A DNA stretch of 64,000 nt from Microbacterium schleiferi (GTDB taxonomy: Bacteria; Actinomycetota; Actinomycetes; Actinomycetales; Microbacteriaceae). Within the stretch, counting starts at the first letter, position 1. Each line of letters begins with the position of its first letter. Of this stretch, positions 33,943-49,456 are shown in pieces. The notes under the pieces were generated by a model, which made no database searches, had not been told where the DNA came from, and saw only the letters and a list, made by a program, of their open reading frames with translations. The translations under genes and the position numbers were made by a program. Location of the stretch: positions 3,162,001-3,226,000 of the forward strand of contig NZ_CP064760.1 in the NCBI RefSeq assembly GCF_015565955.1. Direction: 5' to 3'.

Positions 33943-33943
33943 C

Positions 33944-35181: not shown

Positions 35182-36017
35182 GAGCTGACGACACCACCCT
35201 CCCCCTCCTGCACGGTCACCGCATCCCGCGAATCGGGGTGGGCACGTGGCCACTCACGGGAGACGAGTGCGCAACGATGGTCGAGAAGGCGGTCGGCTAC
35301 GGTTACCGCCTGTTCGATACGGCGTACAAGTACGCGAATGAGGAGGCCGTCGGTGCCGGTCTGCGTGCATCGGGCATCCCTCGTGACGAGGTCTTCATCA
35401 CGAGCAAGTTCAACAAGGAGGACCACAGCGTCGAGGGAGTGCAGCGCGCGTACGACCGATCGCTGAAGACCCTTCGCGTCGACTACCTCGATCTGTTCCT
35501 GATCCATTGGCCGGTTCCGGCCCTCGACCGATACGTCGAAGCGTGGAAGGGTCTGGTGAGACTGCTCGAAGAGGGACGAGTGAAGGCGATCGGCGTCTCC
35601 AACTTCAAGTCTCACCACCTTCAGCGCGTCGTCGACGCGACCGGTGTCGTCCCCGACGTCGATCAGATCCAGCTCAGCGTCGACATCGCCCGTGTCGAAC
35701 AGCGCAGCTTCCAGCGCGCTCACGGCATCCTGACCGAGGCGTGGAGCCCGCTCGGACGCGGAGGAGCCCTGCTGTCCGATCCCGCGGTGACCGCGATCGC
35801 GTCGAAGTATGACAAGTCGCCCGCACAGGTCCTACTGCGCTGGCACATCGAGGAAGGGATCGTTCCCGTCCCGCGCGCCGGCGATGAGAAGCATCTCGCG
35901 CAGAACATCGACGTCTTCGATTTCACGCTCAGCTCGGAGGATATGGCGACGCTGAGTGGGCTGGATCAAGGCGAAGAAGCCGCCCGCGACCCGGACGATC
36001 CGGCCAACGGGCACTGA
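35178..36017 (+). CDS. aldo/keto reductase, candidate dihydrodiol or aldehyde oxidoreductase
   Basis: A 279-residue AKR of the 2,5-diketogluconate reductase group: RIPRIGVGTWPL, YRLFDTAYKYANEEAVG (Asp and Tyr), FITSKFN (Lys), LFLIHWPVP (His), AIGVSNFKSHH and VPVPRAGDEKHLAQN. It is the last gene of the dioxygenase operon. No other dihydrodiol dehydrogenase is present in the island, so it may oxidise the cis-dihydrodiol; that is inference. Confidence 0.85.
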   Translation: MRADDTTLPLLHGHRIPRIGVGTWPLTGDECATMVEKAVGYGYRLFDTAYKYANEEAVGAGLRASGIPRDEVFITSKFNKEDHSVEGVQRAYDRSLKTLRVDYLDLFLIHWPVPALDRYVEAWKGLVRLLEEGRVKAIGVSNFKSHHLQRVVDATGVVPDVDQIQLSVDIARVEQRSFQRAHGILTEAWSPLGRGGALLSDPAVTAIASKYDKSPAQVLLRWHIEEGIVPVPRAGDEKHLAQNIDVFDFTLSSEDMATLSGLDQGEEAARDPDDPANGH

Positions 36018-36116
36018 GGCCCACGGCGGCGGGTCGGTCGCTCCCGCAGCCACGCTCATCAGCGGCGTGTTCGCGTGCGCAGCGCATCCATGGGCGCTAC
36101 GACGACCCGGGCCGGT

Positions 36117-36941
36117 TCACCCCAACAGTTCGGCGAGGCGGATCGCGGCGTCCTGCAGTGACCGCGCTAGGGACTTGACCTTGCCCGGCGGTAACCGCTG
36201 CACGGGCGCGGAGGCGTTGATCGCCAGTCGCAGTCCCGACGAGACGTGGACCGGGACCGCGACGCTCGCCACGCCGTCCTCGCTTTCCTGCCGATTCACG
36301 GCATAACCGTCCAGTCGTGTCCGAACCAGTTCGGCGACGAGTTCGTCTCGGGAACGTATGGAGTTCGGTGTGACGATCTCGAGCTGCTCGTCCGGGTACA
36401 GCCGGAAGAGCTGCTCGTCGCTCAGCTCGGCAAGCAGCGCCTTGCCGGTCGAGGTGCAATGCGCCGGCAGGGTCTTGCCCAGTCTCGAAACCACGCGCAC
36501 GGCCACATCGGGCTCGGCAACGGCGAGGAATCGGACATGGTTGCCCTCGAGCGTGCCCAGGTGGCAGGTCTCACCGAGGGCGGCGCTGAGGTCCTCGAGG
36601 ATCGGCTGCGCCAGTCTCGGGACATCCATCCTGCGCAGCACCGAGAAGGCCACCGTCGTCAGCGCCGGGCCAGGGCCGTAAGCCTTGGTCACCGGGTTCT
36701 GCCGCACGAAGCCGCGCCATGCCAGCATCGCGAGAAGTCGGTGCGCGGTCGAGGTCGCCACCCCGAGGAGGGCACCGGCGTCCGTGAGCCGCAGCTCGTG
36801 CTCCTCACCCAGCAGCAGGATCAGCTTCAGCGCGTTGTCGACCGACTCGATCGGATACTGGGGTGGATCGCCCGGCGACCCGAGCTGTCGATTCTGCACG
36901 GCAGAAAGCTTACTTGCAACGTGGGCGCGCTCCTCCTGCAC
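36117..36941 (-). CDS. IclR family transcriptional regulator
   Basis: A 274-residue IclR protein: winged HTH at about 30-90 (IESVDNALKLILLLGEEHELRLTDAGALLGVATSTAHRLLAML) and effector domain with LPAHCTSTGKALLAEL and GYAVNRQESEDGVASVAVPV. It is convergent with the dioxygenase operon. IclR regulators control phthalate and protocatechuate genes in actinobacteria, so it is the best candidate to bind the CTAGCAGAATC sites. A C-terminal stretch (ASAPVQRLPPGKVKSL) completes the domain. Confidence 0.9.
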   Translation of the reverse strand: MQEERAHVASKLSAVQNRQLGSPGDPPQYPIESVDNALKLILLLGEEHELRLTDAGALLGVATSTAHRLLAMLAWRGFVRQNPVTKAYGPGPALTTVAFSVLRRMDVPRLAQPILEDLSAALGETCHLGTLEGNHVRFLAVAEPDVAVRVVSRLGKTLPAHCTSTGKALLAELSDEQLFRLYPDEQLEIVTPNSIRSRDELVAELVRTRLDGYAVNRQESEDGVASVAVPVHVSSGLRLAINASAPVQRLPPGKVKSLARSLQDAAIRLAELLG

Positions 36942-37059
36942 CGCGCGCTCCGATGCCGACCCGACAGGCGGGAGGATCGTCTCCGCGGTGCCACTGCAGC
37001 CCGTGCCACCCCACGCCGCCCGCGTGGCTCCCTGTGACGGCCCCGACGGCCCAGGCGCT

Positions 37060-37193
37060 CTACGGTCGGAGCAGGACCTTCAGGCTGCTGGACGCGTCGC
37101 GGGACTGCTCGAAGGCGGCGGCGGCATCGTCGAAGGCGAACTCGTGGGTCGCCAGCGGCGACAGATCGATCCCCTGGGCGTCGGACGCCTGAC
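37060..37193 (-). pseudogene. alcohol dehydrogenase (MDR family) C-terminal remnant
   Basis: The last roughly 42 codons of a medium-chain dehydrogenase: SDAQGIDLSPLATHEFAFDD followed by AAAAFEQSRDASSSLKVLLRP, the usual ending. Nothing of the catalytic or Rossmann part is present; the upstream sequence belongs to a GntR remnant. A recombination scar. Confidence 0.65.
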
Positions 37194-37195
37194 GA

Positions 37196-37690
37196 TCGAC
37201 TCGAGGACGGCCTCGTACTCGCGATGAGCGATGGCGAACGACTGCGGGTGCCACAACTGATAGATGTGTAAGCAGCGTTCCGGGTAGGAGTCCACTACCC
37301 GCCCCAACGGGATGTCTGCACGCGCGACGCAGCAGCGGAGGAACGCGTGGTGCGCCACCAGCCAGGCGCCCATGTCACCGACTGCCAGCGCCGCATCCAT
37401 TAGCGTCCCGTACTCGCGCGAAGCGCCGATCTCGGAGCGCAGCATCCGTCCACCGTCCGGCGCGCGCCTAAGGACTCCAGCTGAAGCCGGACACCGTAGA
37501 GCTGGTCGACCTCTTCTACGTCCGGGTGATACACCGTCGCTCGGCGATGGTATCGGCCTCGTTTGAGCCTTTCTTCCCGCAGCAAGCGAAACGCCTCGTG
37601 CAAATGACCTCCCCGTCGATCCAGGTCTTTCAACTTTCCATCCTGCGTGAGGCGGCAGTGGCGGTGACACTCCACTGCTCGGAAGAGCAC
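37196..37690 (-). pseudogene. GntR family (FCD domain) regulator remnant
   Basis: Two overlapping frames carry pieces of one GntR/FCD protein: HEAFRLLREERLKRGRYHRR and HPDVEEVDQLYGVRLQLESL (end of the HTH and start of the ligand domain), then in another frame LMDAALAVGDMGAWLVAHHAFLRC and SFAIAHREYEAVLESIV (FCD core). The recognition helix region is incomplete and the two parts are out of frame near 37460. The sequence then runs into the alcohol dehydrogenase fragment. 37691-37796 upstream holds nothing recognisable. Confidence 0.55.
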
Positions 37691-37796
37691 TATTTCGCGC
37701 TATTGATCCGGACCCCGATGGTCGGAAGCTGTTCAGTGCCGCGTCATCGGCGCAATACGCTGGGAGACGGGGCTTCCTCTGCCCCGGGAGGACACC

Positions 37797-38351
37797 ATGC
37801 AACCAGATAACCTCACGGTCACGGCTCGGGTGGCGCGCACAGCCGTCCCCGGGCGGCTGGACGATCTCACCGAGTGGGCGCATGGTTTCACCGGCCGGGC
37901 CCAGTCGTTCCCCGGCTACCGGGAGTCGAAGGTCCGAGTCTCGGAACGGCACCGGCGCCAGGTTGTCGTCGAGATCACGTTCGCTTCCCCCCATGACCTC
38001 ATCCGGTGGGAGGACAGTAAGGAGCGGCAGGCGCACCTGCAACAGGCCGTGCCGCTCACGATCGGGCAGGCCCGTCCACTGACTCCGGACGCCCTCACCG
38101 GTGCAATCCCGACGGCCGGTCCCGCGCGCCCGCGGTGGTGGACGGCGATTTTAGTGTGGATCGCGCTGGTACCGCCTGCCATGTTCAACGCCTACTTCAT
38201 CGCTCCGCTCCTGACCGGCCTGCCGCCGTACCTCCAGATCCTATGTACGACGCCACTGACCGTCGCGTGCGTCATCTGGGTGATGTTGCCTCTATTGCAC
38301 GCGCTCGAGGAGAGCATCCGCCACTGGCTCGCGTGGCGGCGCGGGCGCTGA
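37797..38351 (+). CDS. antibiotic biosynthesis monooxygenase-like membrane protein
   Basis: A 184-residue protein: an ABM/dimeric ferredoxin-like domain at residues about 5-95 (VTARVARTAVPGRLDDLTEWAHG, FPGYRESKV, FASPHDLIRWEDSKERQAHLQQ), then two membrane helices (TAILVWIALVPPAMFNAYFI and LCTTPLTVACVIWVMLPLL). The family is widespread in actinobacteria without a firm function. GGGAGG lies 8 bases before the ATG. It survives among fragments at 37-40 kb. Confidence 0.75.
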   Translation: MQPDNLTVTARVARTAVPGRLDDLTEWAHGFTGRAQSFPGYRESKVRVSERHRRQVVVEITFASPHDLIRWEDSKERQAHLQQAVPLTIGQARPLTPDALTGAIPTAGPARPRWWTAILVWIALVPPAMFNAYFIAPLLTGLPPYLQILCTTPLTVACVIWVMLPLLHALEESIRHWLAWRRGR

Positions 38352-38394
38352 GCGTCTGCCCCATTAGGCGCTGTCGCGGCGGGCAAAGCCCTCT

Positions 38395-38775
38395 CCGCTC
38401 CCTCTTGTCAATCTTGCCTACCTTGGTGAGGGGCATGTCGTCGACGGCGATCAGCCGCTCGGGGTGCTTATGCTTAGCCACCCCGGCGGACTCCATGGCG
38501 GCGCGGATCCGTTCGAGCCCGAGCGGGCCGCCCTCCTTGAGACTCACGTAGACGCATACCCGCTCGCTGAACACGGGGTCGAGCATCGCGACGGCGGCCG
38601 CTAGATCGAAGCTGTCATAGCGGTAGACGAGGTCCTCCACCTCTTCGCACGAAATCTTCTCGCTGCCTCGGTTGATCATGTCGAGATGTAGCCATCCTCG
38701 GTGAAGGACCGCGCGTTCGTCTCAGGTGCGCGGTAGCATCCGCGCGGGGTGTAGCGGATCGGTTTCCTGCTCGAG
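38395..38775 (-). pseudogene. AMP-dependent aryl acid ligase (EntE-like) C-terminal fragment
   Basis: Sequence of 2,3-dihydroxybenzoate-AMP-ligase type: RYTPRGCYRAPETNARSFTEDGY near 38770-38690, then in a shifted frame DMINRGSEKISCEEVEDLVY and ending DDMPLTKVGKIDKR with the catalytic Lys of A10. The N-terminal two thirds and the natural stop are missing, and one frame shift lies near 38680. It might be a piece of an aromatic acid-CoA or siderophore ligase. Confidence 0.65.
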
Positions 38776-38838
38776 CATAGATCGACGGCTCATCAGATGC
38801 CTCCAGAGTTCTTTTCGTCGGTTATGTCGGTGTGGTGA

Positions 38839-39048
38839 TCAGCGGCGGCGCTGGCGCTTGCCGCCCCAGAACGCGCGGACTGCCATGGTGATCGCTTCGT
38901 CTTTGGTGAGGCGATCACCACGGGCCGCGGCTTCGTCGCGTGCCTGGTTGATGTACTCGAAGACGTCCGGAGGTAGTCGGAAGGTCGCGGGGTGTTTTTC
39001 GATGCGCTGGACATTGTACGGGCCGCGCTTCTTGCCGGTGCGGGGCGA
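38839..39048 (-). pseudogene. N-terminally truncated KRGPYNV-type ribbon-helix-helix protein
   Basis: The last roughly 66 codons match the C-terminal domain of the protein at 40865: KKRGPYNVQRIEKHPATFRL, then VFEYINQARDEAAARGDRLTKDEAITMAVRAFWG and a basic tail. The Ala/Pro-rich N-terminal arm is missing and the reading frame runs into the methylase fragment near 39050. It is either a remnant or, if an upstream start is used, a short DNA-binding protein. Confidence 0.6.
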
Positions 39049-39055
39049 CGTGTCA

Positions 39056-40135
39056 CACCCCAATCAGGGCGGCTTCGACGTCGTCATCGGCAACCCACCC
39101 TACGTCAACCGGCGCGAGCTCAGCTACCGCATCACCGGCTTCGAGACAGACAACGTCGACGACATCTACGCCTCCTGCTGCGAGCGCTCGGCGCAGATCA
39201 CGCGCCCGGATGGCCGGCTCAGCCTGATCGTTCCCATCCGCAGCCAGTTCGCCGATCGCGACGAGTCACTGCGGAAGTTCTACGAGCGGCGGTTCGATGC
39301 GATCTGGGTGAGCACCTTCCAGGAACGCCCGGCTGCCCTGTTCCAGGTGAAGGTGCGCAGCACGATCATCACCGCCGCCGGGTATGGCAGCGTCTCCGAG
39401 CTGCACACGACGCTCACCCACAGCTGGATCGAGGCGTTCCGTCCGCATCTGATGGCGACACTGCGGTATTCGCTTCGGCCCGCCGGCTCGCGGACCCCGA
39501 ACTGGATGCGCGCCAGCAGCGACGCGATGTTCGAGCTGATCGACACGCTGCTTGCGAAGGGCACGATCTCCTCGACGCCGCTTGTCCGTGTGAGCGACTA
39601 CTCCGTCGGTTTCAAGAAGACCGCCACGTACTTCCTGAGCACGTACACGGTGCCGCCGGTCACCTACGACAAGACCACGCACGCCACGGTGCCCCTCAAC
39701 GAGGGGAAGCTGTTCGTTCAGAACCGGAAGGACCAGCTCGCGGCCAGCGCGATCGCGGCGTCGCGGCTGGCGTTCCTGTGGTGGACGTTCACGGGCGACT
39801 GCTTCAACGTCACCAAGGGCACGATGTCGCAGATCCCATTCTCCCCGCACGCTTACGGGCAGGACACGTTCGATGCTCTGGTGGAGCTCGGCGAGAGGAT
39901 CGAGGAGGCGCTGCCGGCCGTGCGCTCCTGGGATCTCAACTCCGGGAAGTACGTGGGCGGGTACGCGATCCCCGAACTGCGTCATCTCACCGGTCAGGCC
40001 GACGAGATCATGCTGGAGGCGATCGGCCGCATCGATCTGCTGCCGGAGATCCAGTACGCCCACGCCCGGATGTACAAGAGCACCGGGATTTCCGCGACGA
40101 CACTGCGAAAGTTGCCGTTCGAGGTCGAGGTGTGA
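39056..40135 (+). pseudogene. N6-adenine DNA methyltransferase (Eco57I/type IIG-like), 5'-truncated
   Basis: The C-terminal part of a large restriction-modification methylase: QGGFDVVIGNPPYVNRREL gives catalytic motif IV (NPPY), followed by ITRPDGRLSLIVPIRSQFA (motif VI-VIII region) and a target-recognition domain ending with VRSWDLNSGKYVGGYAIPEL. The AdoMet motif I and anything upstream are absent; the join to unrelated sequence is near 39050. About 360 residues remain. Likely a relic of a type IIG or BREX-like system. Confidence 0.75.
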
Positions 40136-40403
40136 CGCGCGACATCCGCACGGGTCCTTTGCCCTCGAGCGACTGCGATCGTTCGTCCGGGTCAGGATCC
40201 TCTGAGTGATGGATATGACAGGTAGGCGCTACCGGATGAGTTGACCCATCTCCCAGTCGCCGAGAGGGATCGTCCGACAAGTTCTGTCAGCGGTCCAAGC
40301 GGGACGGTGGCGGTCAGGTTGATCATCGCCGCACAGCATAGAACGCGTTCTCGAACTCGATGGGCGGGACGACACACCGACAGCGGTGGGGTGCCTACCC
40401 TTC

Positions 40404-40829
40404 TCAGGCGGAGTCACGGAGCGAGGTGACAAGCTCCGCGGGGAGGGCAAAGACCTTCTCGAGCAACGGGAGAAGGTCCCGGACTGCCTCGAGGTGCTGC
40501 TCTTCGGTCAGATCGTCGATCGCCGGAGGCTCGTCGCCAGTCCAGCCGATCGCTTCCGCCACGATCGTCAGGGACCAGGAGTCCCACCTGAGCCGCCCCT
40601 CGGATCGCAGCTGCTCCCGGAACTGACCGAGCACGCCCACGGGCTGAAACGCATTGCGATCGCGCGCGAGCTCGTCGCGAACGTACAACATCGCCGTTTC
40701 GAAACCGAGCAGGAACGTGTGCACTCGCTCGAACGTGACGGGCTGCCCGATATACATTCCGGATCGCTTCACGAATGCCTCGGCGATCGAGTAGACCGGC
40801 AACTCGGCCGGCCCGTTAGTTTCACTCAT
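40404..40829 (-). CDS. hypothetical protein of the plasmid-like module
   Basis: A 141-residue acidic protein, mostly helical (SIAEAFVKRSGMYIGQPVTFERVHTFLLGFETAM, EEQHLEAVRDLLPLLEKVF). The 5' end starts 35 bp after the RHH gene stop on the same strand, so it may be the last gene of the PolB-like operon. No family recognised. 40136-40403 downstream shows no gene. Confidence 0.6.
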   Translation of the reverse strand: MSETNGPAELPVYSIAEAFVKRSGMYIGQPVTFERVHTFLLGFETAMLYVRDELARDRNAFQPVGVLGQFREQLRSEGRLRWDSWSLTIVAEAIGWTGDEPPAIDDLTEEQHLEAVRDLLPLLEKVFALPAELVTSLRDSA

Positions 40830-40864
40830 CTCGACTTCCCTGCCAGCAGCTCAGGAGACGGTCA

Positions 40865-41259
40865 TTACCCGCGGCGCCGTTTGCGGCCCCAGTAGGCGCG
40901 AAGCGCAACGGTGACGATCTCGTCCTTGGTGAGGCGGTCGCCGCGGCTGGCTGCATCCTGCTTGGCCCAGTCCATCAGTTCAAGCGCGTCGTCGGGGAGA
41001 CGGATCGAGACGGGCTTCTTCTGGACGTAGACGACGTTGTAGGGCCCCCGCTTCTTCTTCGCCGGCGGTGGCGTCTCCGCCTCGGCCGACTCAGGAGGCG
41101 TCGCGCTCGCCGCTGCCGGCTTCTGGCTTGCGCGAGGTGCGCGTGCGGGTGCTTCGGACGTCGCTGCCTGGTCGACGTCGCTGGTGACTTCCTCAGCGGG
41201 GGCGCGGCCTTGCGTGCGCGGGGCTTCGCTGCAGCTGTGGGCTTCTTCGGGGCGGCCAT
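40865..41259 (-). pseudogene. KRGPYNV-type ribbon-helix-helix DNA-binding protein, frameshifted
   Basis: The C-terminal domain (KKKRGPYNVVYVQKKPVSIRL, LELMDWAKQDAASRGDRLTKDEIVTVALRAYWG) looks like a CopG/ribbon-helix-helix fold. The N-terminal MAAPKKPTAAAKPRARKAAP lies in another frame; one extra base in the G/C run at 41198-41202 fuses the two through a long Ala/Pro linker to about 131 residues. The start at 41259 follows the HTH gene stop (41262) by 2 bases. Plasmid partition or copy control is a plausible role. Confidence 0.6.
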
Positions 41260-41261
41260 GG

Positions 41262-42086
41262 TCACTGACCACCTCCTCGGTTTCCACGGCGGCGAGCGCG
41301 GCGCTCCTCGATGCGCCGCTTCTCTTCCATGCTGATGAGCTCCGCCGGCGACAGCGAGCGGGGGCGGCGAGTGCGGCCGCGCTCGGCCTGCCTCTGGTAC
41401 TCGGTCGTCTTGGCCGTGCTGACGACGTTGAGGGTGACGCCGGTGATGGTGTCGCGGCTGGTGTCGAGGTTCACGTATCGGTTCTTCGACTCTTCGCGGA
41501 ACCAGCCGAGGGCGTCGCCGCCGTTCTCGTGGATGCGCTTGAGCATCGTCGAGGCGTTGTACGAGTTGACCTCCATCACGCGGCCGTTGGAGAAGGTCAG
41601 GTGGGCGGTGATCTGCTTCTGCTTGTCGTGGGACTGGCCCTTGGCGGCGTTGCGGACCTGCTTGATCAGTTCGGCGTTCGCCTGCTCGCGGCCCTTCGCG
41701 GTGCGGCCCTTGGGGATGCGCATCTCGATGTACCGGTCGCCCCCGGTGGCGTATGCCACGTCGACGCGCAGCCGACCACCCTGGCGACCCTCAACGTAGG
41801 TGCCGCTGAGGTCTTCGGGGATGACGGGCTTGGCGCCGGCCTTGCCTCGCACGGGGGCGATCGAGCCGTCCTTGCGCCGGCGCCGCGGCGGGACGTGGGT
41901 GAGGCGTCCGGTGTCAGCGAGCTCCTGGAGCGCCTGGCGGTAGAGGGCGCCGCTGGTTTCGCCGTTGAGGATCTTGCGGACCATTCGAGGCGAGCGGTGC
42001 AGCTCCTCGGCGATCTCGGCCGTGCTGATGCCCTTGCGCCGCAGATCGCGGATGAGGTCTTGGGCGGTGCGCTGCTGGTCAGCCAT
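41262..42086 (-). CDS. HTH-containing basic protein coupled to the PolB-like gene
   Basis: A 274-residue protein with an N-terminal resolvase-like helix-turn-helix (QDLIRDLRRKGISTAEIAEELHRSPRMVRKILNGE), a central beta-rich domain (GTYVEGRQGGRLRVDVAYATGGDRYIEMRIPKG) and a strongly basic tail rich in Arg. It starts inside the stop of the PolB-like gene, so the two are translationally coupled. A replication partner such as a terminal or initiator protein is a testable idea; no such homology is visible to me. Confidence 0.65.
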   Translation of the reverse strand: MADQQRTAQDLIRDLRRKGISTAEIAEELHRSPRMVRKILNGETSGALYRQALQELADTGRLTHVPPRRRRKDGSIAPVRGKAGAKPVIPEDLSGTYVEGRQGGRLRVDVAYATGGDRYIEMRIPKGRTAKGREQANAELIKQVRNAAKGQSHDKQKQITAHLTFSNGRVMEVNSYNASTMLKRIHENGGDALGWFREESKNRYVNLDTSRDTITGVTLNVVSTAKTTEYQRQAERGRTRRPRSLSPAELISMEEKRRIEERRARRRGNRGGGQ

Positions 42087-43714
42087 CAGCCCTTCTCCTC
42101 TGCCTGCTCGAGCGCCTTGGCGATGCCGGCCCGCTCGGCACGTGCTTTCAGCGCGTCACGCTGCCGCAGCGTCTCCGGCGTGATGAAGGATCCGTTGAGG
42201 TAGCCCTGCAGGCGCAGGCGCCCGGTCTTGCCGTCGTCGCCGCCGCCGATGAACCGGTCCGGCAGGGACCACGCCGGCAGCTTGGTCGTGTAGATCGCAT
42301 CACCCTGGATGCCGATGAGCGTCGAGGGGTCGACCGTGAGAGCACCGGAGGTGTAGCCGCCGAGGGAGCTGGGGCCGTGGAGGACGCGAGCGCGTGCGCG
42401 ACCCCAGACCTGGGCGGCGAGCTCCGGGTGGTAGAAGCTTCGGGTGCGGTCGTTCGGGCGCGACGGGATGCGATAGATCCAGAGGTTGCCCTGTCGCAGC
42501 ATCTTGGCCCTGTACTCGGGCGGGACGTCATCGGGCGACGCGGCGACGCGGGTCTCGTCGCGGCCCGCGGCGGCGAATGCACCGATCGAGTGCAGCATGA
42601 TGTTCCGCAGCGCGGCGAGCACAGCGCGGCGCAGGTCCGGGTGCATCTCGTCCTGCAGCTGGACTCGCTCGCGGGCGCGCGTCATGCGCTCGGTGAAGGT
42701 GTCTAGAGGCTTGGCCTTGCGGAACACCACGGCCTCGTGAGGGCGGATCTCCCACCCGTGCTTGAGGGCGACGTGGATCTCGCTGCCGTCGGCCCAGGTG
42801 TCGTGCACCGCTCCGGGCCGGTTCGGATAGAACCAGCCTTCGCGAACGTCCAGGTGCTTCACACCGAGCAGGCCAACGTGGTTCCAGCCCTGAGGGACGC
42901 GGAACCGCACGTGGAAGCGGGCGCGCGCGTAGGGGTCTTGCTCGAGCAGCTCGTACGCGGCGGCCTGGTTCAGCCGGATCGCGGGGCCGATACCGAGCTC
43001 GCGCCCGACGCCGGCGAACATGAACCGGCCGTCGACGTAGGCGAACTCGCTGATCTTCTTCGTCTTGGCCGGGTCGATCAGCGGGACGCAGTCCTCGTGC
43101 TTGGCGAACGACTCCCCCGCGACCAGGTGGTCGTAGTGGTGCAGGCCCGAGGTGAAGTGGATCTCCTGGGCGATGTCGTCTTCGACCGGCACGGGGTTGA
43201 TGTTCTTCGGCAGCGACAGCGCCCACAGGTTCGTTCCGGTGGCGGCAGGGCTGTTGAACAGGCGCGCGTTCTCGTCGGCGTGGCGAATGATCGACGCGGT
43301 GACGTTCCAGGCCAGACGAGCCTGGGCAGGGGTCAGCGGCCCGTCGCCGAACCACTCCTCCGCGGTGCGGACTTCGATCTTGAAGCCGGTGACCGCGTGC
43401 TCGAACCGACCGGTGGGCGGGCCGTTGTTGACCCAGTGGGCTCCGGGCTTCCAGTTCGGGGTCTGGACGTACAGCCAGTGCCGCACGCCAGGCGCAGGCT
43501 CGGGGCGCTTCCCGGTCAGCATGATGCGGTTAGCGCCGTACGAGGCAGCCGTGTCGAGCAGGTCCGTCAGGTTGGGGTTCTTGCGGCGCTCGCCGATGAC
43601 GGGGCGAACGGGCGTGCCGGCGTCGGTGACGCCTTGCCCGGTGGTCTGGTCGACCCAGATCGTGGGCACGTCCTTCGGCGTCCACGGCTTGGGTCGGTAG
43701 TTCAGCTCGTCCAT
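42086..43714 (-). CDS. putative divergent family-B DNA polymerase-like protein
   Basis: A 542-residue protein I do not match to a named family. The second half follows the order of a family-B polymerase palm and fingers: a motif A-like FAYVDGRFMFAGVG; a TWADGSEIHVALKHGWEI and VVFRKAKPLDTFTERM stretch; a motif B-like helix ending RNIMLHSIGAFA (usual form K-x3-N-S-x-Y-G, so several positions differ); VWGRARARVL; and a motif C-like IGIQGDAIYTT where D-x-D-S is GDAI. One Asp is kept in each of motifs A and C. An N-terminal domain (about 1-200) could be a decayed exonuclease domain. It heads the operon with the HTH and RHH genes behind a GGTTATATT promoter. Confidence 0.5.
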   Translation of the reverse strand: MDELNYRPKPWTPKDVPTIWVDQTTGQGVTDAGTPVRPVIGERRKNPNLTDLLDTAASYGANRIMLTGKRPEPAPGVRHWLYVQTPNWKPGAHWVNNGPPTGRFEHAVTGFKIEVRTAEEWFGDGPLTPAQARLAWNVTASIIRHADENARLFNSPAATGTNLWALSLPKNINPVPVEDDIAQEIHFTSGLHHYDHLVAGESFAKHEDCVPLIDPAKTKKISEFAYVDGRFMFAGVGRELGIGPAIRLNQAAAYELLEQDPYARARFHVRFRVPQGWNHVGLLGVKHLDVREGWFYPNRPGAVHDTWADGSEIHVALKHGWEIRPHEAVVFRKAKPLDTFTERMTRARERVQLQDEMHPDLRRAVLAALRNIMLHSIGAFAAAGRDETRVAASPDDVPPEYRAKMLRQGNLWIYRIPSRPNDRTRSFYHPELAAQVWGRARARVLHGPSSLGGYTSGALTVDPSTLIGIQGDAIYTTKLPAWSLPDRFIGGGDDGKTGRLRLQGYLNGSFITPETLRQRDALKARAERAGIAKALEQAEEKG

Positions 43715-43733
43715 CTCACCCCCTCATTCGTCA

Positions 43734-43772
43734 GGTTATATTAGTCAAGAGTACTTGAAAATTGCAATCAGA
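43734..43772 (-). promoter_or_regulatory. promoter of the PolB-like operon with GGTTATATT motif
   Basis: On the minus strand TTGCAA (about 43770-43765) and TAATAT (about 43746-43741) are 18 bases apart, a good -35/-10 pair, ending 27 bases before the ATG at 43714. AATATAACC (43742-43734), the complement of GGTTATATT, overlaps the -10. The same word occurs in two other promoters of this module. Confidence 0.55.
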
Positions 43773-43814
43773 TTTCGCAGTCGACGGGCGCTCCATGAAG
43801 GTCTGGCGGGGTCG

Positions 43815-44051
43815 CTAGGACGCGAGGCGGCCGCCGTAAGAGCGCCCGCGTCCGTGGTAGGACTTCTGCGCCTTCCGCAGCCCTTCCTCGGTCATCCCCA
43901 GCAGGAGGGCGATCTCTCGCTGGGTCAGCTCGGCCGCGCGCGCCTCGTCGACGACTTTGCCGCGGCGTTCGCGCAGCTCGTCCGCTTGCGCGAGCTGCTG
44001 GCCGATGCGACGGAGCTCCTCACGGATGGCGTCCGCGTCCTTGTTAGCCAT
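43815..44051 (-). CDS. small helix-turn-helix protein
   Basis: A 78-residue protein: a coiled, charged first half (ANKDADAIREELRRIGQQLAQADELRERRGKVV) and an HTH second half (LTQREIALLLGMTEEGLRKAQKSYHG). It resembles the short regulators of actinobacterial plasmids and phages. It is divergent from the gene at 44145, and the shared gap carries GGTTATATTC. It is a candidate for the protein that binds that motif. Confidence 0.65.
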   Translation of the reverse strand: MANKDADAIREELRRIGQQLAQADELRERRGKVVDEARAAELTQREIALLLGMTEEGLRKAQKSYHGRGRSYGGRLAS

Positions 44052-44113
44052 GCGCCCCAGCATCCCCAACCAAGTTGGGTCTGGTTGCCGCGGCGCGCCG
44101 TAACCGCGAAAGT

Positions 44114-44123
44114 GGTTATATTC
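44114..44123. promoter_or_regulatory. GGTTATATTC motif in a divergent promoter
   Basis: GGTTATATTC, identical to one arm of the palindrome at 47356, lies 22 bases before the ATG at 44145 and in the gap shared with the divergent HTH gene. It is AT-rich within an otherwise GC-rich gap and could include the -10 box. Confidence 0.5.
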
Positions 44124-44144
44124 ATCCAGCTGAGAGGAGCGCTG

Positions 44145-44678
44145 ATGACCGGACGGCACCTCACCACGGCGGACGTCGCCGAGAAGCTCGGCGTGTCCGT
44201 CGTCGCGGTCTACAAGATGCGCTCCATCAGCAACAAGCTGCGCAGAGCCGGCCAGGAGGGTCCTCTGCTCCCCGAGCCGGTTGCCATAGAAGGCAACTCC
44301 CCGCTCTACGACGAGGCCGCGATCGACGCATTCGCGCAGGAGCGCGCGCGCAGGGCGCCCTCGCAGCGCGGCCGCCGGCCGCGACTGATGCCGGGACTGG
44401 CGCGCGATGCGGCTTTCGCGGAGCGGTTGCGGGCGGCGATCGCGGACGGGGCGGGGGCGCCCGAGGTTCCCACGCAGGCGGCTCTGATCGACCTGCTCGG
44501 CTTGAACGTCGTCACGTTCGGTGAGCGGATGCGAGGGCGCACCCGCTGGACCGACGCCGAGCTCGAGGTGATCAGGCGCACCCTCGGTGTCGACACGACG
44601 GATGCGAACGAGGTCGTAGACCGCGCTCGCGCGGCCAAGCGTCAGGCGCGCGCGGCGAGATCCCACGCGGGTTCGTAG
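44145..44678 (+). CDS. DNA-binding protein with N-terminal helix-turn-helix
   Basis: A 177-residue protein. The N-terminus (HLTTADVAEKLGVSVVAVYKMRSISNK) is a MerR/excisionase-like HTH, followed by DEAAIDAFAQERARRAP; the C-terminal half (AALIDLLGLNVVTFGERMRGRTRW and AELEVIRRTLGV) may hold a second DNA-binding helix pair. The tail is basic. GAGAGGAG precedes the ATG at 44145. It is convergent with the HNH gene (5-bp gap). Confidence 0.7.
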   Translation: MTGRHLTTADVAEKLGVSVVAVYKMRSISNKLRRAGQEGPLLPEPVAIEGNSPLYDEAAIDAFAQERARRAPSQRGRRPRLMPGLARDAAFAERLRAAIADGAGAPEVPTQAALIDLLGLNVVTFGERMRGRTRWTDAELEVIRRTLGVDTTDANEVVDRARAAKRQARAARSHAGS

Positions 44679-44683
44679 CGGCT

Positions 44684-45436
44684 TCACGACATGCTCCCGC
44701 TCTCGTCGCTGGCTTGCTGGGCAGCGCAGGTTGAGAGCGTGTCCACGAGCGCACCGCGGTCGGCTTCGTCGACCGCGAGGTGCCAGGTGTCGACGATCTC
44801 CGTGTAGCGGGCGACGTAGGTGCACACGTAGTCGGCGTTCGATGGCAGCCACAGGGCTGGCCCGTGGTCGTTCTTGGCCGCATTCGTGTTGCCATCGACG
44901 GCGACGATGTTGTCGAACGAGTTGGCGAACTGAATGCGCTGCTGCTCGGTCCACGCCCACGCGCCCCCGGCGTGCGCCGCCGAAAGGCTGACGATGTGGT
45001 CGATCTGGACGCCGGAGCTTCCCGGGGCTCCAGGGGCGGCGATCCGGTCGTGCTCGAACTCAATGCGTGTGCCCGTGTACGGATCGGGGTCGAGCACGCC
45101 GGAGAGCACCGTGCAACCGTCACGGACGACGTCCTGCAGCTGGACGGCGAGGAGATCGTCTCGCTGATCGCAGCCGTTTCCCTCGATGTCGATCCAGCGC
45201 TCGCCGAACGTGGCGCGGCGATACTCGGGAATCTCCTCGGTGGGATCGATCAGCGGCAGCTCCTGCGCGACTGCGGCGAGCGCGGTGTAGTCGTAGGTCG
45301 GGTCCGGGGCGGGTGCCTGCGGGCGCGTCCATGTGTCGATCCAGGAGGTGATGCCCAGCTGGTGGGCGCCGAAGCCGAGCGCGAGAGCTGCGACCGCGGC
45401 GAGGGCTGTGCTGGCGCGGCGGGTGCGTCGGTTCAT
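44684..45436 (-). CDS. secreted HNH endonuclease family protein (DUF1524-like)
   Basis: A 250-residue protein with an N-terminal signal or anchor (ALAAVAALALGFGAHQLGI) and a C-terminal GmrSD/DUF1524-type nuclease domain: GVQIDHIVSLSAAHAGGAWAW supplies the DH of the HNH motif, and the NSFDNIVAVDGNTNAAKNDHGPALW segment the remaining N and K-x-D-x-G part. Four Cys suggest disulfides outside the cell. It is the last gene of a five-gene overlapping operon and overlaps its predecessor by 4 bases. Confidence 0.85.
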   Translation of the reverse strand: MNRRTRRASTALAAVAALALGFGAHQLGITSWIDTWTRPQAPAPDPTYDYTALAAVAQELPLIDPTEEIPEYRRATFGERWIDIEGNGCDQRDDLLAVQLQDVVRDGCTVLSGVLDPDPYTGTRIEFEHDRIAAPGAPGSSGVQIDHIVSLSAAHAGGAWAWTEQQRIQFANSFDNIVAVDGNTNAAKNDHGPALWLPSNADYVCTYVARYTEIVDTWHLAVDEADRGALVDTLSTCAAQQASDESGSMS

Positions 45437-45909
45437 CTGCGCTCCTTTGCCTGTGCGGTGTCGGCTTGGTCGAGCAGCAGTATGGTTCGGGCGATCTGGG
45501 TGCGTGCCTCGTCGATGACCTCGAGGGTTTCGTCGTCGGCGTCGAGCTCTGAGAGTGCGTGGCTCTGGCGGCGGAGCTGGTCGCCGAGGTGGAACATGCC
45601 GGCACTGAGGAGGACCTCGGCGAGCGCGGCCGCGCGGGCGCCTTGGTGGTCGGCGCTGACGGCGAGGTCGTCGATGATCTCGATGAGGGTTGCGCGGGAT
45701 CCCATCGTTGGGTCTTCTCCTGGAGTGAGCTCGCGGAGCGCTTCACGGTTGAGCAGCGTCTGGAAGAGCCTGTGCATCCGTTGGGTGAGGGGGCGGCCGT
45801 CGCGGCGGGTGCAGTTGAGCGCGAACTCGCGGAAGCTCCATCGGACGGTGACGGGTGTGCCGGTCTGGATGGTCATGGCTTCCTGGAGGCGCACGGCGAT
45901 GTCGGTCAT
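45433..45909 (-). CDS. hypothetical protein in the HNH-nuclease operon
   Basis: A 158-residue helical protein (FREFALNCTRRDGRPLTQRMHRLFQTLL, GARAAALAEVLLSAGMFHLGDQLRRQSHAL). Both ends overlap neighbours by 3-4 bases. No known domain; the Asp/Glu-rich C-terminal half could be a coiled coil. Perhaps an immunity or accessory protein for the nuclease, which is speculation from position only. Confidence 0.6.
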   Translation of the reverse strand: MTDIAVRLQEAMTIQTGTPVTVRWSFREFALNCTRRDGRPLTQRMHRLFQTLLNREALRELTPGEDPTMGSRATLIEIIDDLAVSADHQGARAAALAEVLLSAGMFHLGDQLRRQSHALSELDADDETLEVIDEARTQIARTILLLDQADTAQAKERR

Positions 45910-46210
45910 CAGTGCTCCTCGGTTCGGCCCAGGTGGGGGATCTGCTTGAGGTGGGCGCCGCGGCCGTTGCCGAGCTGGGGGAGATCGCGCAGCTGGGCAG
46001 GTGCAGTCTCGCGTTCGGCCCGTGGCCTGCTGCCGCGTGGGGTGTGGGCTGCCGCGTTGGCCGGGTGTGCCGGGCGCCTCGCTGAGTCAGCGGGAGGGGG
46101 TTGAAGCGCAGCGACAGGGCCCAGCGATGGCCGCCGAGCGCGCGGACGACCCGCAGCCACTCTCCCTCTTTGGTGGAGTCGATGGTGAAGGTGTTCGGCT
46201 GGTCAGACAT
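45909..46210 (-). pseudogene. small basic protein of the HNH-nuclease operon, frameshifted
   Basis: It starts MSDQPNTFTIDSTKEGEWLR and VVRALGGHRWALSLRFN at 46210; after the five-G run at 46096-46100 the meaningful frame changes to ADSARRPAHPANAAAH and ends QIPHLGRTEEH, whose stop overlaps the next ATG as in the rest of the operon. One added base gives a protein of about 100 residues. The clean end-to-start overlap is the main evidence for the corrected frame. Confidence 0.5.
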
Positions 46211-46454
46211 CTGCGGCTTCTTTCGGTGCGAAGGGGCTGTTCTTGGCGTCGCGGAGCATCTGCCGGGTGATCGGCTCGGTCTCCTCGAGCGAGGCGAGCG
46301 AGAAGTAGTGGCGGCGGGCGCGGGCCGCTTCGGTGCAGGTGAGCAGCTGGCGGTTGCCGTGGTTCGGGCATCCTCCCTTGCTGCGGCATCCGGCCAGGTA
46401 GCCGGCGGTGGTGCCGTGCAGGGCGGCTTCGAGGATGTCGAGCGTCTTGCTCAT
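46203..46454 (-). CDS. small Cys-containing protein of the HNH-nuclease operon
   Basis: An 83-residue protein with GYLAGCRSKGGCPNHGNRQLLTC, a Cys/His-rich segment like a small zinc-binding motif, then a helical EAARARRHYFSLASLEE. Its start overlaps the upstream stop and its end overlaps the next start by 8 bases. The Cys pattern resembles that at the N-terminus of the preceding gene (HLCGCRACMDGNARRRRDRY). Function unknown. Confidence 0.6.
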   Translation of the reverse strand: MSKTLDILEAALHGTTAGYLAGCRSKGGCPNHGNRQLLTCTEAARARRHYFSLASLEETEPITRQMLRDAKNSPFAPKEAADV

Positions 46455-47337
46455 CAGGCGGCCTGCCGGAGTCCGAGGTCGTCACGGTCGCGGTCGATGG
46501 TGCGGACGTCGACGCCGAGCAGGTCGCTGAGCTGGGTGAGGCTGAGTCCGCGTTCGGTCCCGCGTCGGGTGGCTTCGAGGCGCTCGTCTCGGGTGAGGCG
46601 GACGTTCTGGCCGGCGAGAGCGAGCTCGATCGCGATCTCGTCGAGCAGGGGTTCCTGCCCGGCTGTGGGCGGTGCCGGGTCGGTGTCGATGTCGTCCCAG
46701 GCCAGCGGCGGCAGCCAGCCGTGCCGGCGTGCGACCGTGAGTGCGTAGGAGCGGCCGACCCGCTGCGCTCGGGTGTGGGTGGGGGCTGCTGGTCCCAGAG
46801 CTCGTCGTAGAGCGCGGCGATGTCGTCGTGGACACGGATGTCCACGTAGGCGCCTTCGAGTGCCTTGTTGACCTTCCAGCGCGGGTAGCCGAGTCGGCGT
46901 GCGATCTCGTGGTGGTTCCATCCGATCGCGGCCAGAGCCTGGAGGCGCCGGCGGGTGCCGCGGCCGTTGACTCGGCCCTGCGCGGCGAGAGTGCTGCTGT
47001 CGGGGGTGACTGCGAGGAGTTTGCGGGCGGTGGCGCCGGTGACGAACCGTGCCGTCTCGCTGTTGAGCAGGCGACGGACCGTGGCGCCGCCGACGCCGGC
47101 GCTGATGGCGATCCGTTCGGGGATCATCCCGGTGTCGACCAGTGCCTGCAGGTGCTGCCGGATCGGCTCGATGGGTTGGTGCGCGTCCTGGTATCGCCCG
47201 TAGGCCAGGAGACGGTAGCGGTCGCGGCGGCGGCGCGCGTTGCCGTCCATGCAGGCGCGGCACCCGCAGAGGTGGACGACGTAGCAGGTGGAGGTCAGCC
47301 CGTGCTTGTGGTCCGGCGGGCAGGTGTGGGTCCGCAT
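46454..47337 (-). pseudogene. helix-turn-helix protein with N-terminal Cys cluster, frameshifted
   Basis: It begins with a Cys/His-rich segment (CPPDHKHGLTSTCY and HLCGCRACMDGN) that could bind zinc, then several HTH-like units (ERIAISAGVGGATVRRLLNSE, NHHEIARRLGYPRWKVNKALEG, SLTQLSDLLGVDVRTIDRDR). The frame breaks at the five-G run 46781-46785; one more base rejoins LWDQQPP to THTRAQRVGRSYALTVARRHG and gives about 294 residues. It is the first gene of the operon behind the perfect palindrome at 47356. Confidence 0.65.
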
Positions 47338-47355
47338 CTTCTCCTCCTCACAGAT

Positions 47356-47377
47356 GGTTATATTCCCGAATATAACC
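47356..47377. promoter_or_regulatory. perfect palindrome operator of the HNH operon
   Basis: GGTTATATTC (47356-47365) and GAATATAACC (47368-47377) form a perfect 10-bp inverted repeat with a 2-base spacer, 18 bases upstream of the ATG at 47337. Single arms occur at 44114 and 43734. It overlaps where the -10 box would be, so repressor binding would block initiation. Confidence 0.7.
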
Positions 47378-47489
47378 CGTTCCCGAGGGTTTGGAACCCC
47401 CTCACTGCTAAGGGGTGGCCCCAGAGGCTCGAAGTCGACAATCTGAACGAGCTACAACGTTTGTTGCGGTTTCTCGCTACACTGTGCGC

Positions 47490-48149
47490 ATGGCAGGATC
47501 AACTTTCGCTCGTCTGGGCGAGCTCGCGTCACAGCGTTGGGGCCTGGTGACCACCGCCCAGGCGCTCGAGGCTGGCGTGGCGCGCCCGACCCTGACGCGC
47601 CTCGCCAACAGCGGCGCGCTCATCCGCGTCGCGCGCGGCGTCTACCGCCTCGCCGGCGCGCCAGAGCACGAGCAGGAGGCGATCCTCGCGACCTGGCTCG
47701 CCCTCGGCGGCGCCGACCGTCCCCGCACAGACACCGGCGTCCCGCCCGTCGTCGCCGCAGGCCAGACGGCCGCGCAGCTGCATGGCATCGGCGACTGGTT
47801 CCCCGGGCCACTCGAGTTCGTCGTTCCCACCCGCCGCGGTACCCGCCTGGACGGGGTGCGGCTCCGCACCCGCGAGCTCGCGCCCACCGAGGTGGTCTCC
47901 GTCGACGGGATGCCGACCATGAGCGTCGAGCGCACGATCGCCGACCTGATCGAGCAGTGGGTCGACCGCTCCCTCGTCGCCGATGCGCTCGCCGACGCCG
48001 CGGACGCGGGAAAGCTGCTCTCCCCCGCCCGCCTGACCGAGTATCTGGAGCCGCTGGCCAAGCCCAACAAGTACCCCTCGGGTGCCGCGCTCGCGGCTGA
48101 TCTGCTCGCTCTTGCGGGCGTCGACGCGGTGGTGCCGGCCGATGCCTGA
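47490..48149 (+). CDS. AbiEi-type antitoxin (type IV toxin-antitoxin)
   Basis: A 219-residue protein: N-terminal winged HTH (GELASQRWGLVTTAQALEAGVARPTLTRLANSGALIRVARGVYRL) and the AbiEi C-terminal region (LEFVVPTRRGTRLDGVRLRTREL, TMSVERTIADLIEQWVDR). Such proteins repress their own promoter and counteract the AbiEii nucleotidyltransferase without direct binding. It overlaps the toxin gene by 8 bases, a typical arrangement. Confidence 0.85.
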   Translation: MAGSTFARLGELASQRWGLVTTAQALEAGVARPTLTRLANSGALIRVARGVYRLAGAPEHEQEAILATWLALGGADRPRTDTGVPPVVAAGQTAAQLHGIGDWFPGPLEFVVPTRRGTRLDGVRLRTRELAPTEVVSVDGMPTMSVERTIADLIEQWVDRSLVADALADAADAGKLLSPARLTEYLEPLAKPNKYPSGAALAADLLALAGVDAVVPADA

Positions 48150-49199
48150 GCCCGACGGCTACAAAGACTGGACGGGGCTTGCGCAGGCGATCAAGGCGGC
48201 CGCGACGAAGGCAGCCGGTGACGGCGCGAGCGCGCTGGATGTGAATGCGCAGATCGTGCAGGCACAGCACGATCGTTTCCTCAGCCGGGTCTTTGCGGAG
48301 GGGGAAGAGTCCGAGTGGCTGCTCAAGGGCGGCACGGCGATGCTCGCCCGGGTGCCGAAGTCACGGTCGACGAAAGACCTGGATCTGGCCTCGACCGGCG
48401 CCGCCGATCTGGATGCCGCGCAGCAGGCGCTCGAGCAGGCAGCCGCGCGTGATCTCGGCGACCATGTGCGGTTCCAGCTCACCCGTGCCCGTGCGACCGG
48501 GCGAGGAGAGAACCAGCCGGGTGTCGCGACCCGGCGCCTGGTGTTCACATGTCTGGACGCGAACACCGGCCGGAGGATCTCCGACATCCCCATCGACGTG
48601 GTCGTCGGCCCTCCCCGGTCGGCCGCGTCGAGACGATCGAGCCGTCGACGCGGCTGCAGCTGGGGCGGCCGGTCCCGTCGCACCCCTACCGGCTGTTCCC
48701 GATCTCCGATCAGGTCGCGGAGAAGGTCACTGCGACGATGAGCACCTACAACGGCCGCCCCAGCAGCCGCGCGAAAGACCTGGTGGACATCGTCACCATT
48801 GCACGCACGCAGCGCGTCGACCTGCGCGAGCTGCAGATGGCCATCGACGCGAAGCGTGCACTGTCAAAGCTCGACTCGTTCACTACGTTCACGGTCCCGG
48901 ACGGTTGGGACGGTCCCTACCGGGTGCTCGCGGCCGGCACGCCCTCAGCCGGCGGGATCACCGATCTGGGTGAGGCCGTGGCTCTCGCGCGTCAGCTGAT
49001 CGATCCCGCGCTCGCCGACGCGCCCGTGCAACCGGGGACGGTCTGGGTCCCTGGCTCAGGCTGGACACAGAACCCTCCGCCGCCGGAGCCGGGCGGCAGC
49101 GGATCCCCTTCGGGGGAGGTCCACGTGCGCGCGCACGTGCGCTCCGGTTATCCCGTCACGGAGCACTGGCGCGCAGCGCGCGGCTCAGCCCAGGAGTGA
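48142..49199 (+). pseudogene. AbiEii-type nucleotidyltransferase toxin, frameshifted
   Basis: Nucleotidyltransferase AbiEii/AbiGii: SEWLLKGGTAMLARVPKSRS and TKDLDLAS carry the GG...D-x-D catalytic pattern, PIDVVVGPP precedes the break, and the second half (VAEKVTATMSTYNGRPSSRAKDLVDIVTIA) lies in another frame. One C added in the run at 48613-48616 restores one protein of about 352 residues. If the base is really missing, the toxin is inactive but the antitoxin remains. Confidence 0.82.
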
Positions 49200-49204
49200 C
49201 CGCG

Positions 49205-49455: not shown

Positions 49456-49456
49456 G

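What the first reader, a model, noticed from the sequence alone, without database searches (positions are those of the whole stretch)
40404..43714. Possible new replication module with a divergent family-B DNA polymerase
The 542-residue protein keeps the order of family-B motifs (A-like, fingers helix, IGIQGDAIYTT as motif C) but with altered catalytic positions. It is coupled to a basic HTH protein and a ribbon-helix-helix protein. A plasmid or ICE with its own unusual polymerase, perhaps protein-primed or with a structural role, would be little described.
Basis: inference. Interest (0 to 1): 0.7.

Follow-up and report, generated by a model that had tools for sequence, protein, structure and literature searches.

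The report
Telomere-copying polymerase pair from linear plasmids
Two neighbouring genes, a divergent DNA polymerase and its likely protein primer, appear to be the machinery that copies the ends of linear bacterial plasmids, and they hint that several end-copying proteins once thought unrelated are one polymerase family.

Summary
The 542-aa protein keeps both catalytic aspartates of family-B polymerases (D228, D472) and is followed directly by a 274-aa HTH protein. Relatives of this ordered pair lie on actinobacterial plasmids, mostly recorded as linear, including pSCO2 and pFRL3, reported to have SCP1-type telomeres. So this is a Tac/Tpc-type telomere replication module: polymerase plus terminal protein. 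Here it sits on a chromosomal contig in a 25-kb block 99.9% identical to a Microbacterium plasmid recorded as linear. It is not a new system, and a 2022 paper already called the Curtobacterium relative phi29-like. What may be new is the wider link: profile comparison joins this family to Tac, Tap and pAL1.101 (both aspartates in 40 of 40 proteins) and, more weakly, to protein-primed viral PolB. A 2015 study showed that Tap and Tac polymerise but stated that they hold no polymerase motif. That is now testable by aspartate knock-outs. Against: Pfam scores below cut-off, no significant PolB match from Tap or pAL1.101 sets alone, and a failed AlphaFold model. The RHH protein looks like a partition gene.

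The parts
42086..43714 (-). 542-aa Tac-like divergent family-B DNA polymerase (telomere-associated polymerase)
43031..43033 (-). codon of D228, motif A aspartate (YVDGRFMF)
   Evidence: Invariant in A2; 40 of 40 across the groups compared
42299..42301 (-). codon of D472, motif C aspartate (IQGDAIYTT)
   Evidence: Invariant in A2; 40 of 40
41262..42086 (-). 274-aa basic HTH protein, Tpc-type terminal protein (predicted protein primer)
   Evidence: Directly downstream of the polymerase gene; homologous to the genes downstream of Tac-type genes
40865..41287 (-). 140-aa ribbon-helix-helix protein, probable partition-type DNA-binding protein; accessory
   Evidence: BLASTP to the small gene next to parA in pCSL1 E 1.5e-7
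40404..40829 (-). 141-aa protein of unknown function; no relative at E 1e-3 in the 19 loci compared
43815..44051 (-). 78-aa protein just upstream of the polymerase gene, also upstream of it in pCSL1 and Microbacterium MYb54
   Evidence: E 3.4e-10 and 1.2e-16
28001..53362 (.). block 99.9% identical to a Microbacterium paraoxydans plasmid recorded as linear (NZ_CP064874); the left edge was not reached in the stretch fetched and lies between 25001 and 28001

Best explanation
A Tac/Tpc-type telomere replication module of actinobacterial linear plasmids. The 542-aa protein is a divergent protein-primed family-B DNA polymerase and the 274-aa HTH protein is its terminal protein. On a linear plasmid, replication forks leave single-stranded 3' overhangs at the ends. 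The HTH protein would bind there and offer a hydroxyl group; the polymerase would attach the first nucleotide to it and add a short stretch, leaving the terminal protein linked to the 5' end. Shown here: homology of both proteins and their order, the two catalytic Asp, plasmid context. Shown by others for relatives (Yang 2015): Tac plus Tpc of SCP1 do protein-primed synthesis in vitro. Inferred: that this pair does so. In this genome the copy sits in plasmid-derived DNA on a chromosomal contig, so it may be idle or serve another replicon in trans.
For: tblastn finds relatives in 54 of 72,556 plasmid records (40 listed, 20 read). They include pLMV7 and pLMA7, reported to carry covalent 5' terminal proteins, and pSCO2 (E 2e-41) and pFRL3 (E 8e-23), reported as having SCP1-type telomeres; pSCO2 is reported to carry tac/tpc. 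The polymerase gene is followed at once by an HTH-type gene in 22 of the 22 loci outside the window whose neighbours I read: 20 plasmid records plus L010 and L020. Profile comparison: Micrococcales-type (18) vs Streptomyces Tac-type (8) P 1.2e-65 over 483 columns. HTH partners: 11 vs 8, P 2.9e-11; 1.9e-5 with the first 60 residues removed; scores 80.3 and 40.3 against at most 21.2 and 15.3 in five shuffled decoys each. PolB: Pfam DNA_pol_B_2 is hit at E 1 or better by 6 of 21 members, best E 4.4e-4; the next family by 2 of 21, best E 0.26. Win+Tac vs four tectivirus polymerases P 5.8e-5, score 48.1 against 20.5 at most in 15 shuffles; Tac-type vs tectivirus+phi29 polymerases P 1.2e-7 over 254 columns, for which no decoys were run. 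Independent in print: HHpred 98.47% to phi29 polymerase for gp137 of pCff1 (passages); the one relative on pCff1 is 67% identical to ours over 94% of it.
Against: The two members scored singly stay below Pfam's gathering score (ours 14.6 bits, the best member pSCO2 19.7, cut-off 25.8), and the model finds nothing in the window's own genome at E 0.001. PHROGs gives no hit annotated as a polymerase. The Micrococcales-type profile alone does not match phi29-type polymerases (P 0.3) and matches tectivirus ones only weakly (P 0.0011; P 0.034 with phi29 types added). SCP1's own Tac/Tpc could not be fetched. Six of 20 family-bearing plasmid records are labelled circular. Clear terminal or near-terminal inverted repeats were found in 3 of 8 records tested, and not in the Microbacterium record. 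No Ser/Thr/Tyr column of the HTH partners points to a priming residue common to all: Y176 and Y204 are kept in 11 of 11 Micrococcales-type proteins but in 0 of 8 Streptomyces-type ones.
Confidence: 0.84

Rival explanations
1. An active PolB that replicates the whole plasmid from its ends in the manner of phi29 (full protein-primed replication), not just end patching.
For: Same protein kinds as in phi29: family-B polymerase beside a terminal-protein gene; published phi29-like model of the Curtobacterium relative (passages).
Against: The replicons are large, 19 kb to 2.8 Mb among the 40 records listed. Relatives with tested activity (Tac, Tap) make only short stretches. The profile matches to viral polymerases lie in the motif A-C region.
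Confidence: 0.08
2. A polymerase-derived structural telomere-binding protein without catalysis, which only positions the terminal protein for a host polymerase.
For: Divergent motif B and loss of the first Asp of motif C; this was the older view of Tap.
Against: Both catalytic Asp are kept in 40 of 40 proteins, which is unexpected without selection for catalysis; Tac and Tap add nucleotides in vitro with no other polymerase added.
Confidence: 0.06
3. A replication module of an ICE or circular plasmid unrelated to telomeres.
For: Chromosomal contig here; 6 of 20 family-bearing plasmid records are labelled circular.
Against: 14 of 20 are labelled linear; pSCO2, labelled circular, has described telomeres; inverted repeats span the whole 4 kb compared at the ends of NBC_00015 (99.98%) and lie near the ends of pC1b and the C. 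acnes plasmid.
Confidence: 0.02

Closest known systems
Tac/Tpc of Streptomyces linear plasmid SCP1 and SCP1-type plasmids (pSCO2, pFRL3)
   Same: Same two-gene order, homologous polymerase-like protein (P 1.2e-65 for the group) and homologous HTH partner (P 2.9e-11)
   Different: Ours lacks the long N-terminal extension (542 aa vs 645-745 aa in the eight Streptomycetaceae proteins) and is 25-29% identical to them; SCP1 itself not compared
pCff1 gp137 (Curtobacterium flaccumfaciens), reported 2022 as phi29-like putative DNA polymerase
   Same: Direct relative, 67% identical over 94% of ours, same kind of neighbour gene; that the relative is gp137 is inferred from plasmid, position and description
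   Different: In the passages I read that report did not connect it to Tac/Tpc, a neighbouring terminal-protein gene or telomeres
pAL1.101 / pAL1.102 of Arthrobacter linear plasmid pAL1
   Same: C-terminal part homologous to our family (P 7.3e-7; tblastn E 1.5e-6); followed by an HTH gene
   Different: 1,707 aa with a CHC2 zinc-finger region; pAL1.102 shows no significant match to our HTH protein (P 0.11)
Tap/Tpg of Streptomyces (NCBIfam NF047542/NF047541)
   Same: Profile-level match of Tap to our family (P 3.5e-7) with the same motif order and Asp
   Different: Window protein does not hit the Tap model; Tpg matches our HTH proteins only weakly and only in the HTH stretch (P 0.006)
Protein-primed family-B polymerases of tectiviruses and phi29-like phages
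   Same: Motif A-B-C order and the catalytic Asp pair
   Different: Much more divergent in sequence; no match to an exonuclease region seen in ours, though that was not tested separately

Membership tests
Tac/Tpc-type telomere pair | Polymerase-like gene followed by HTH terminal-protein gene in one operon | tested here: met
   Window, and 22 of 22 other loci whose neighbours were read; gene order only, transcription not tested
Tac/Tpc-type telomere pair | Both proteins homologous to those of SCP1-type-telomere plasmids | tested here: met
   pSCO2, pFRL3
Tac/Tpc-type telomere pair | Homology to SCP1 Tac and Tpc themselves | not tested
   SCP1 record not found in the collections
Tac/Tpc-type telomere pair | Deoxynucleotidylation of the terminal protein; 5' protein-capped linear DNA | not testable with these tools
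   Reported for SCP1; protein-capped ends reported for pLMV7 and pLMA7
Family-B DNA polymerase (DNA_pol_B_2, PF03175) | Invariant catalytic Asp of motifs A and C in order A-B-C | tested here: met
Family-B DNA polymerase (DNA_pol_B_2, PF03175) | Score above Pfam's gathering cut-off | tested here: not met
   14.6 bits (ours), 19.7 (pSCO2, best of 21), cut-off 25.8
Family-B DNA polymerase (DNA_pol_B_2, PF03175) | Profile-profile similarity to protein-primed PolB above decoys | tested here: met
   Win+Tac vs tectivirus set P 5.8e-5 (48.1 vs 20.5 at most in 15 decoys); Tac vs tectivirus P 7.7e-4 (39.4 vs 24.9 at most); Tac vs tectivirus+phi29 P 1.2e-7, no decoys. Not met against the phi29 group alone with Win (P 0.3), Tac (P 0.064) or Win+Tac (P 0.45)
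Family-B DNA polymerase (DNA_pol_B_2, PF03175) | PolB fold | tested here: inconclusive
   AlphaFold pLDDT 35; published model of the relative is phi29-like (passages)
Tap (NF047542) | Match to the Tap model | tested here: not met
   No hit at E 1 or better for the window protein or any of 21 members
pAL1.101-type | 1,707-aa enzyme with zinc finger and primase-like part | tested here: not met
   Window protein is 542 aa and has no such Pfam or NCBIfam hit, pAL1.101 does

The most novel reading that the evidence does not exclude
Tap, Tac, pAL1.101 and this family are one lineage of divergent protein-primed family-B DNA polymerases, related to those of actinobacterial tectiviruses. The ends of Streptomyces chromosomes and of many actinobacterial linear plasmids would then be copied by a captured PolB with a recognisable two-Asp active site, not by an unrelated 'new class' of polymerase.
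Probability: 0.6. Interest if true: 0.8.

Novelty: new member of a known kind. Interest (0 to 1): 0.57.

Why it matters
Yang et al. 2015 (abstract and passages) found that Tap and Tac make DNA on a protein primer, wrote that they contain no polymerase motif and share no homology with each other or other proteins, and called them a new class. If the link made here holds, the active site is known (motif A and C Asp), the puzzle that Streptomyces has protein-primed synthesis but no B-family polymerase is resolved, and two point changes test it. It also gives a function to mostly 'hypothetical' proteins on 54 plasmid records of Microbacterium, Micrococcus, Clavibacter, Curtobacterium, Cutibacterium, Streptomyces and others.

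Tried and rejected
The second job was not used, as no deeper permitted alignment existed. Relatives in phages (0 of 50,697 records) and in IMG/VR (0 in two scans): none. Single-protein and profile PDB sequence searches: best E 0.28 and 0.24, no polymerase. IMG/VR scans for relatives of the Badulia, Transit and BP1 polymerases found none; two for L17. Tectivirus polymerase in plasmids: no match. Pfam on 5 Tap and 5 pAL1-like proteins: 0 of 10 hit PF03175. A fusion in L038 was considered and dropped: by eye the upstream frame looks non-coding. The idea that the RHH protein belongs to the core module was dropped.

Rows chosen or dropped before counts: of 54 plasmid records with a match, 40 were listed and 20 read. 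Tap set: 7 of the 9 matches over the cut-off (one with an internal stop and one without a locus left out) plus pFRL1. pAL1.101 set: pAL1 plus L088-L090, L111 and L116. Phi29 set: 13 of the 36 loci plus phi29, Transit, BP1 and L17 (one further locus dropped as too short). Family loci L002-L009, L011, L012, L036-L040 and L042 were not read for their neighbour gene.

Literature: all ten searches used. No title or abstract start that I saw in the listings claims that Tap or Tac are family-B; only passages, and two short whole texts, were read. The library lacks most subscription papers. Kolkenbrock 2010 (pAL1.101) is not held; that it noted partial family-B motifs in the C-terminal part is recalled, so that part of the link may be old.
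Full report
What is there. The four minus-strand ORFs exist exactly as described. The 542-aa protein (42086-43714) and the 274-aa HTH protein (41262-42086) overlap by one base. A 140-aa RHH protein and a 141-aa protein follow. The 542-aa protein hits one Pfam family, weakly: DNA_pol_B_2, E 0.015, residues 301-353. PHROGs and NCBIfam give nothing for it at E 1 or better.

Where it occurs. tblastn finds relatives in 54 of 72,556 plasmid records (41 covering at least 80% of the query) and in 0 of 50,697 phage records. They are in Streptomyces 22, Curtobacterium 7, Micrococcus 6, Cutibacterium 5, Kitasatospora 4 and others. In sampled whole genomes it is rare: 3 of 299 in the family, one being the window's own and one a 51-residue fragment; 7 of 347 in the order, again counting the own genome and one short match; 1 of 58 close relatives, the own genome only. 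Ten of the 11 loci returned by a close-relatives scan of genome contigs encode a 100% identical protein, which suggests recent spread.

Context. The window lies in a single 3,296,665-base contig. By eye, the contig starts with dnaN-, gyrB- and gyrA-like genes and ends with parB-, parA- and yidC-like genes, so it reads as a chromosome. Window 28001-53362 is 99.9% identical to part of NZ_CP064874, a 177,760-base Microbacterium paraoxydans plasmid recorded as linear; the left edge was not reached in that stretch, but window 1-25000 has no match of this identity. Four near-identical insertion-sequence copies lie in the stretches compared: window 20901-22600 and 24035-25701, and in the flanks at C1:3125572-3127248 and C1:3236713-3238389. 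The natural reading is a linear-plasmid segment merged into the chromosome; mis-assembly is not excluded.

The pair. In 22 of the 22 loci outside the window whose neighbours I read (20 plasmid records plus L010 and L020), the polymerase-like gene is followed immediately by a 199-305 aa gene; those aligned or matched are of the HTH-protein type. Fourteen of the 20 plasmid records are labelled linear and six circular. Among the six, pSCO2 is described as having SCP1-type telomeres. pLMV7 and pLMA7 are reported to have proteins covalently attached to their 5' ends (whole short texts read). Inverted terminal repeats were tested in 8 records: clear in 3 (NBC_00015, the whole 4 kb compared at 99.98%; pC1b 301 bases at 99.7%, the right copy 436 bases inside the end; C. 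acnes plasmid 221 bases at 100%, the left copy 584 bases inside), absent in 4, and only short 74-79% matches in 1.

Which family. PMC8743542 (passages) reports SCP1-type telomeres on SCP1, pSCO2 and pFRL3, and says that SCP1 and pSCO2 carry tac and tpc. Our protein matches pSCO2 gene B446_RS35760 with E 2e-41 and pFRL3 HTE82_RS01655 with E 8e-23. The Micrococcales-type set (18) and the Streptomyces Tac-type set (8) are one family: hhalign P 1.2e-65 over 483 columns. Their HTH partners are homologous too: P 2.9e-11, and 1.9e-5 without the first 60 residues. That the pSCO2 pair is the paper's tac/tpc is an inference from its being the one match there; SCP1 itself could not be fetched.

Is it a family-B polymerase? 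Very probably. Motifs: YVDGRFMF (A), LRNIMLHSIGAFA (B), IQGDAIYTT (C), with a conserved stretch before motif B that I read as the fingers; Streptomyces members read, for example, YDRTFAYA and RTDALYLT. DNA_pol_B_2 is hit at E 1 or better by 6 of 21 members, best 4.4e-4 for pSCO2 over residues 291-475; the next family by 2 of 21 at E 0.26. The best member does not pass Pfam's cut-off, and the model finds nothing in the window's genome at E 0.001. Profiles: Win+Tac vs four tectivirus polymerases P 5.8e-5, score 48.1 vs 20.5 at most in 15 shuffled decoys; vs tectivirus+phi29 P 1.8e-4. Tac-type vs tectivirus P 7.7e-4 (39.4 vs 24.9 at most in 15 decoys); vs tectivirus plus phi29 group P 1.2e-7 over 254 columns. 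Win alone vs tectivirus P 0.0011, vs tectivirus+phi29 P 0.034. No decoys were run for the tectivirus+phi29 set. Phi29 group alone: Win P 0.3, Tac P 0.064, Win+Tac P 0.45; seven decoys of it score up to 17.7 against 17.4 observed for Win+Tac. Independently, PMC8929003 (passages) reports HHpred 98.47% to phi29 polymerase and an AlphaFold model resembling phi29 polymerase (superimposed at 5.8 A; model-quality score 0.39) for gp137 of pCff1. The one relative of our protein on pCff1 (113947-115587) has a 255-aa neighbour in the same place. That it is gp137 is inferred from position and description.

The wider link. pFRL1's Tap matches the NCBIfam Tap model over its full length (1111.8 bits); pAL1.101 matches the same model with E 2.2e-26, well below that model's cut-off (92.8 of 600 bits). 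The C-terminal part of pAL1.101 finds members of our family directly by sequence search, E 1.5e-6, 4.0e-5 and 2.1e-4 over about 80 residues, at places that our protein also finds. Profiles: Win+Tac (26) vs Tap (8) P 3.5e-7, score 65.5; vs pAL1.101-type (6) P 7.3e-7, score 64.3; Win alone vs Tap 3.4e-5 and vs pAL1.101-type 1.3e-7; Tac-type alone vs these 7.2e-4 and 5.6e-4; Tap vs pAL1.101-type P 1.7e-38. Decoys for these pairs (7 per direction tested) score 27.3 or less. The Asp of motif A (Tap: IDVNMAF) and of motif C (Tap: SDCVVY) are present in 40 of 40 proteins. The pooled 40-member profile matches the tectivirus set (P 2.3e-6; score 59.1 vs 18.9 at most in 15 decoys), tectivirus plus phi29 (P 3.9e-7) and the phi29 group alone (P 4.4e-5), the last two without decoys. 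Against: Tap alone (P 0.23-0.6) and pAL1.101-type alone (P 0.03-0.38 against the sets, 0.0025 against Badulia alone) give no significant match to PolB, and 0 of 10 Tap or pAL1-like proteins hit PF03175. So their PolB nature rests on the chain through Tac and on the motifs. The Tap model's N-terminal part rings widely (58 of 197 genomes, 4 of 14 controls; 8 of 197 and 0 of 14 over the cut-off), so only full-length matches were used as Tap.

How it would work. Yang et al. 2015 (PMC4513846; abstract and passages) showed that Tap with Tpg, and Tac with Tpc, attach and extend nucleotides on the terminal protein without another polymerase, for a short length only (13 nt for Tap; not determined exactly for Tac). 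They wrote that the two classes share no homology and contain no polymerase motif. The present module fits that reaction, with the HTH protein as primer and the 542-aa protein as catalyst. No hydroxyl residue kept in all HTH partners stands out as the priming site; Y176 and Y204 are kept in 11 of 11 Micrococcales-type proteins only. Loss of a proofreading domain is my inference, since the profile matches cover the motif A-C region; it was not tested.

Verdict. Ordinary as a system (a linear-plasmid telomere pair, with the Curtobacterium relative already in print as a putative polymerase). Interesting as a bridge that makes the nature of Tap and Tac directly testable.

Noticed in passing
window 5238-12861: Protocatechuate 4,5-dioxygenase pathway cluster, 76-82% identical to clusters on plasmids of Arthrobacter, Streptomyces, Microbacterium and others (12 of 56 records listed).
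   Followed up: no
window 31436-36016 (approx.): Ring-hydroxylating dioxygenase / reductase / aldo-keto reductase cluster inside the block shared with the M. paraoxydans plasmid.
   Followed up: no
window 47490-49200 (approx.): AbiEi/AbiEii-type toxin-antitoxin pair in the shared block (annotated); a similar pair also lies downstream of the module in pCff1.
   Followed up: no
window 38839-39063: Second RHH protein (74 aa), paralogue of the 140-aa RHH; 79% identical to the one behind the terminal-protein gene in Microbacterium MYb54.
   Followed up: partly
window 38999-40135: Methyltransferase-like frame resembling an Eco57I-type restriction-modification methylase of Microbacterium sp. No. 7 (80.7%), annotated as SAM-dependent methyltransferase in the plasmid.
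   Followed up: no
window 44684-45436: HNH endonuclease family protein with a GmrSD C-terminal domain hit (E 7e-13).
   Followed up: no
L138, L139 vs window 61373-63637 and 8175-12108: Both recorded ends of the M. paraoxydans plasmid match internal window DNA at 81-87%, so that record's ends may not be true telomeres.
   Followed up: partly
window 20901-22600 and 24035-25701: Two of four near-identical insertion-sequence copies (about 1.67 kb; 468-aa open frame that I take, by eye, for a transposase) near the plasmid-derived block.
   Followed up: partly
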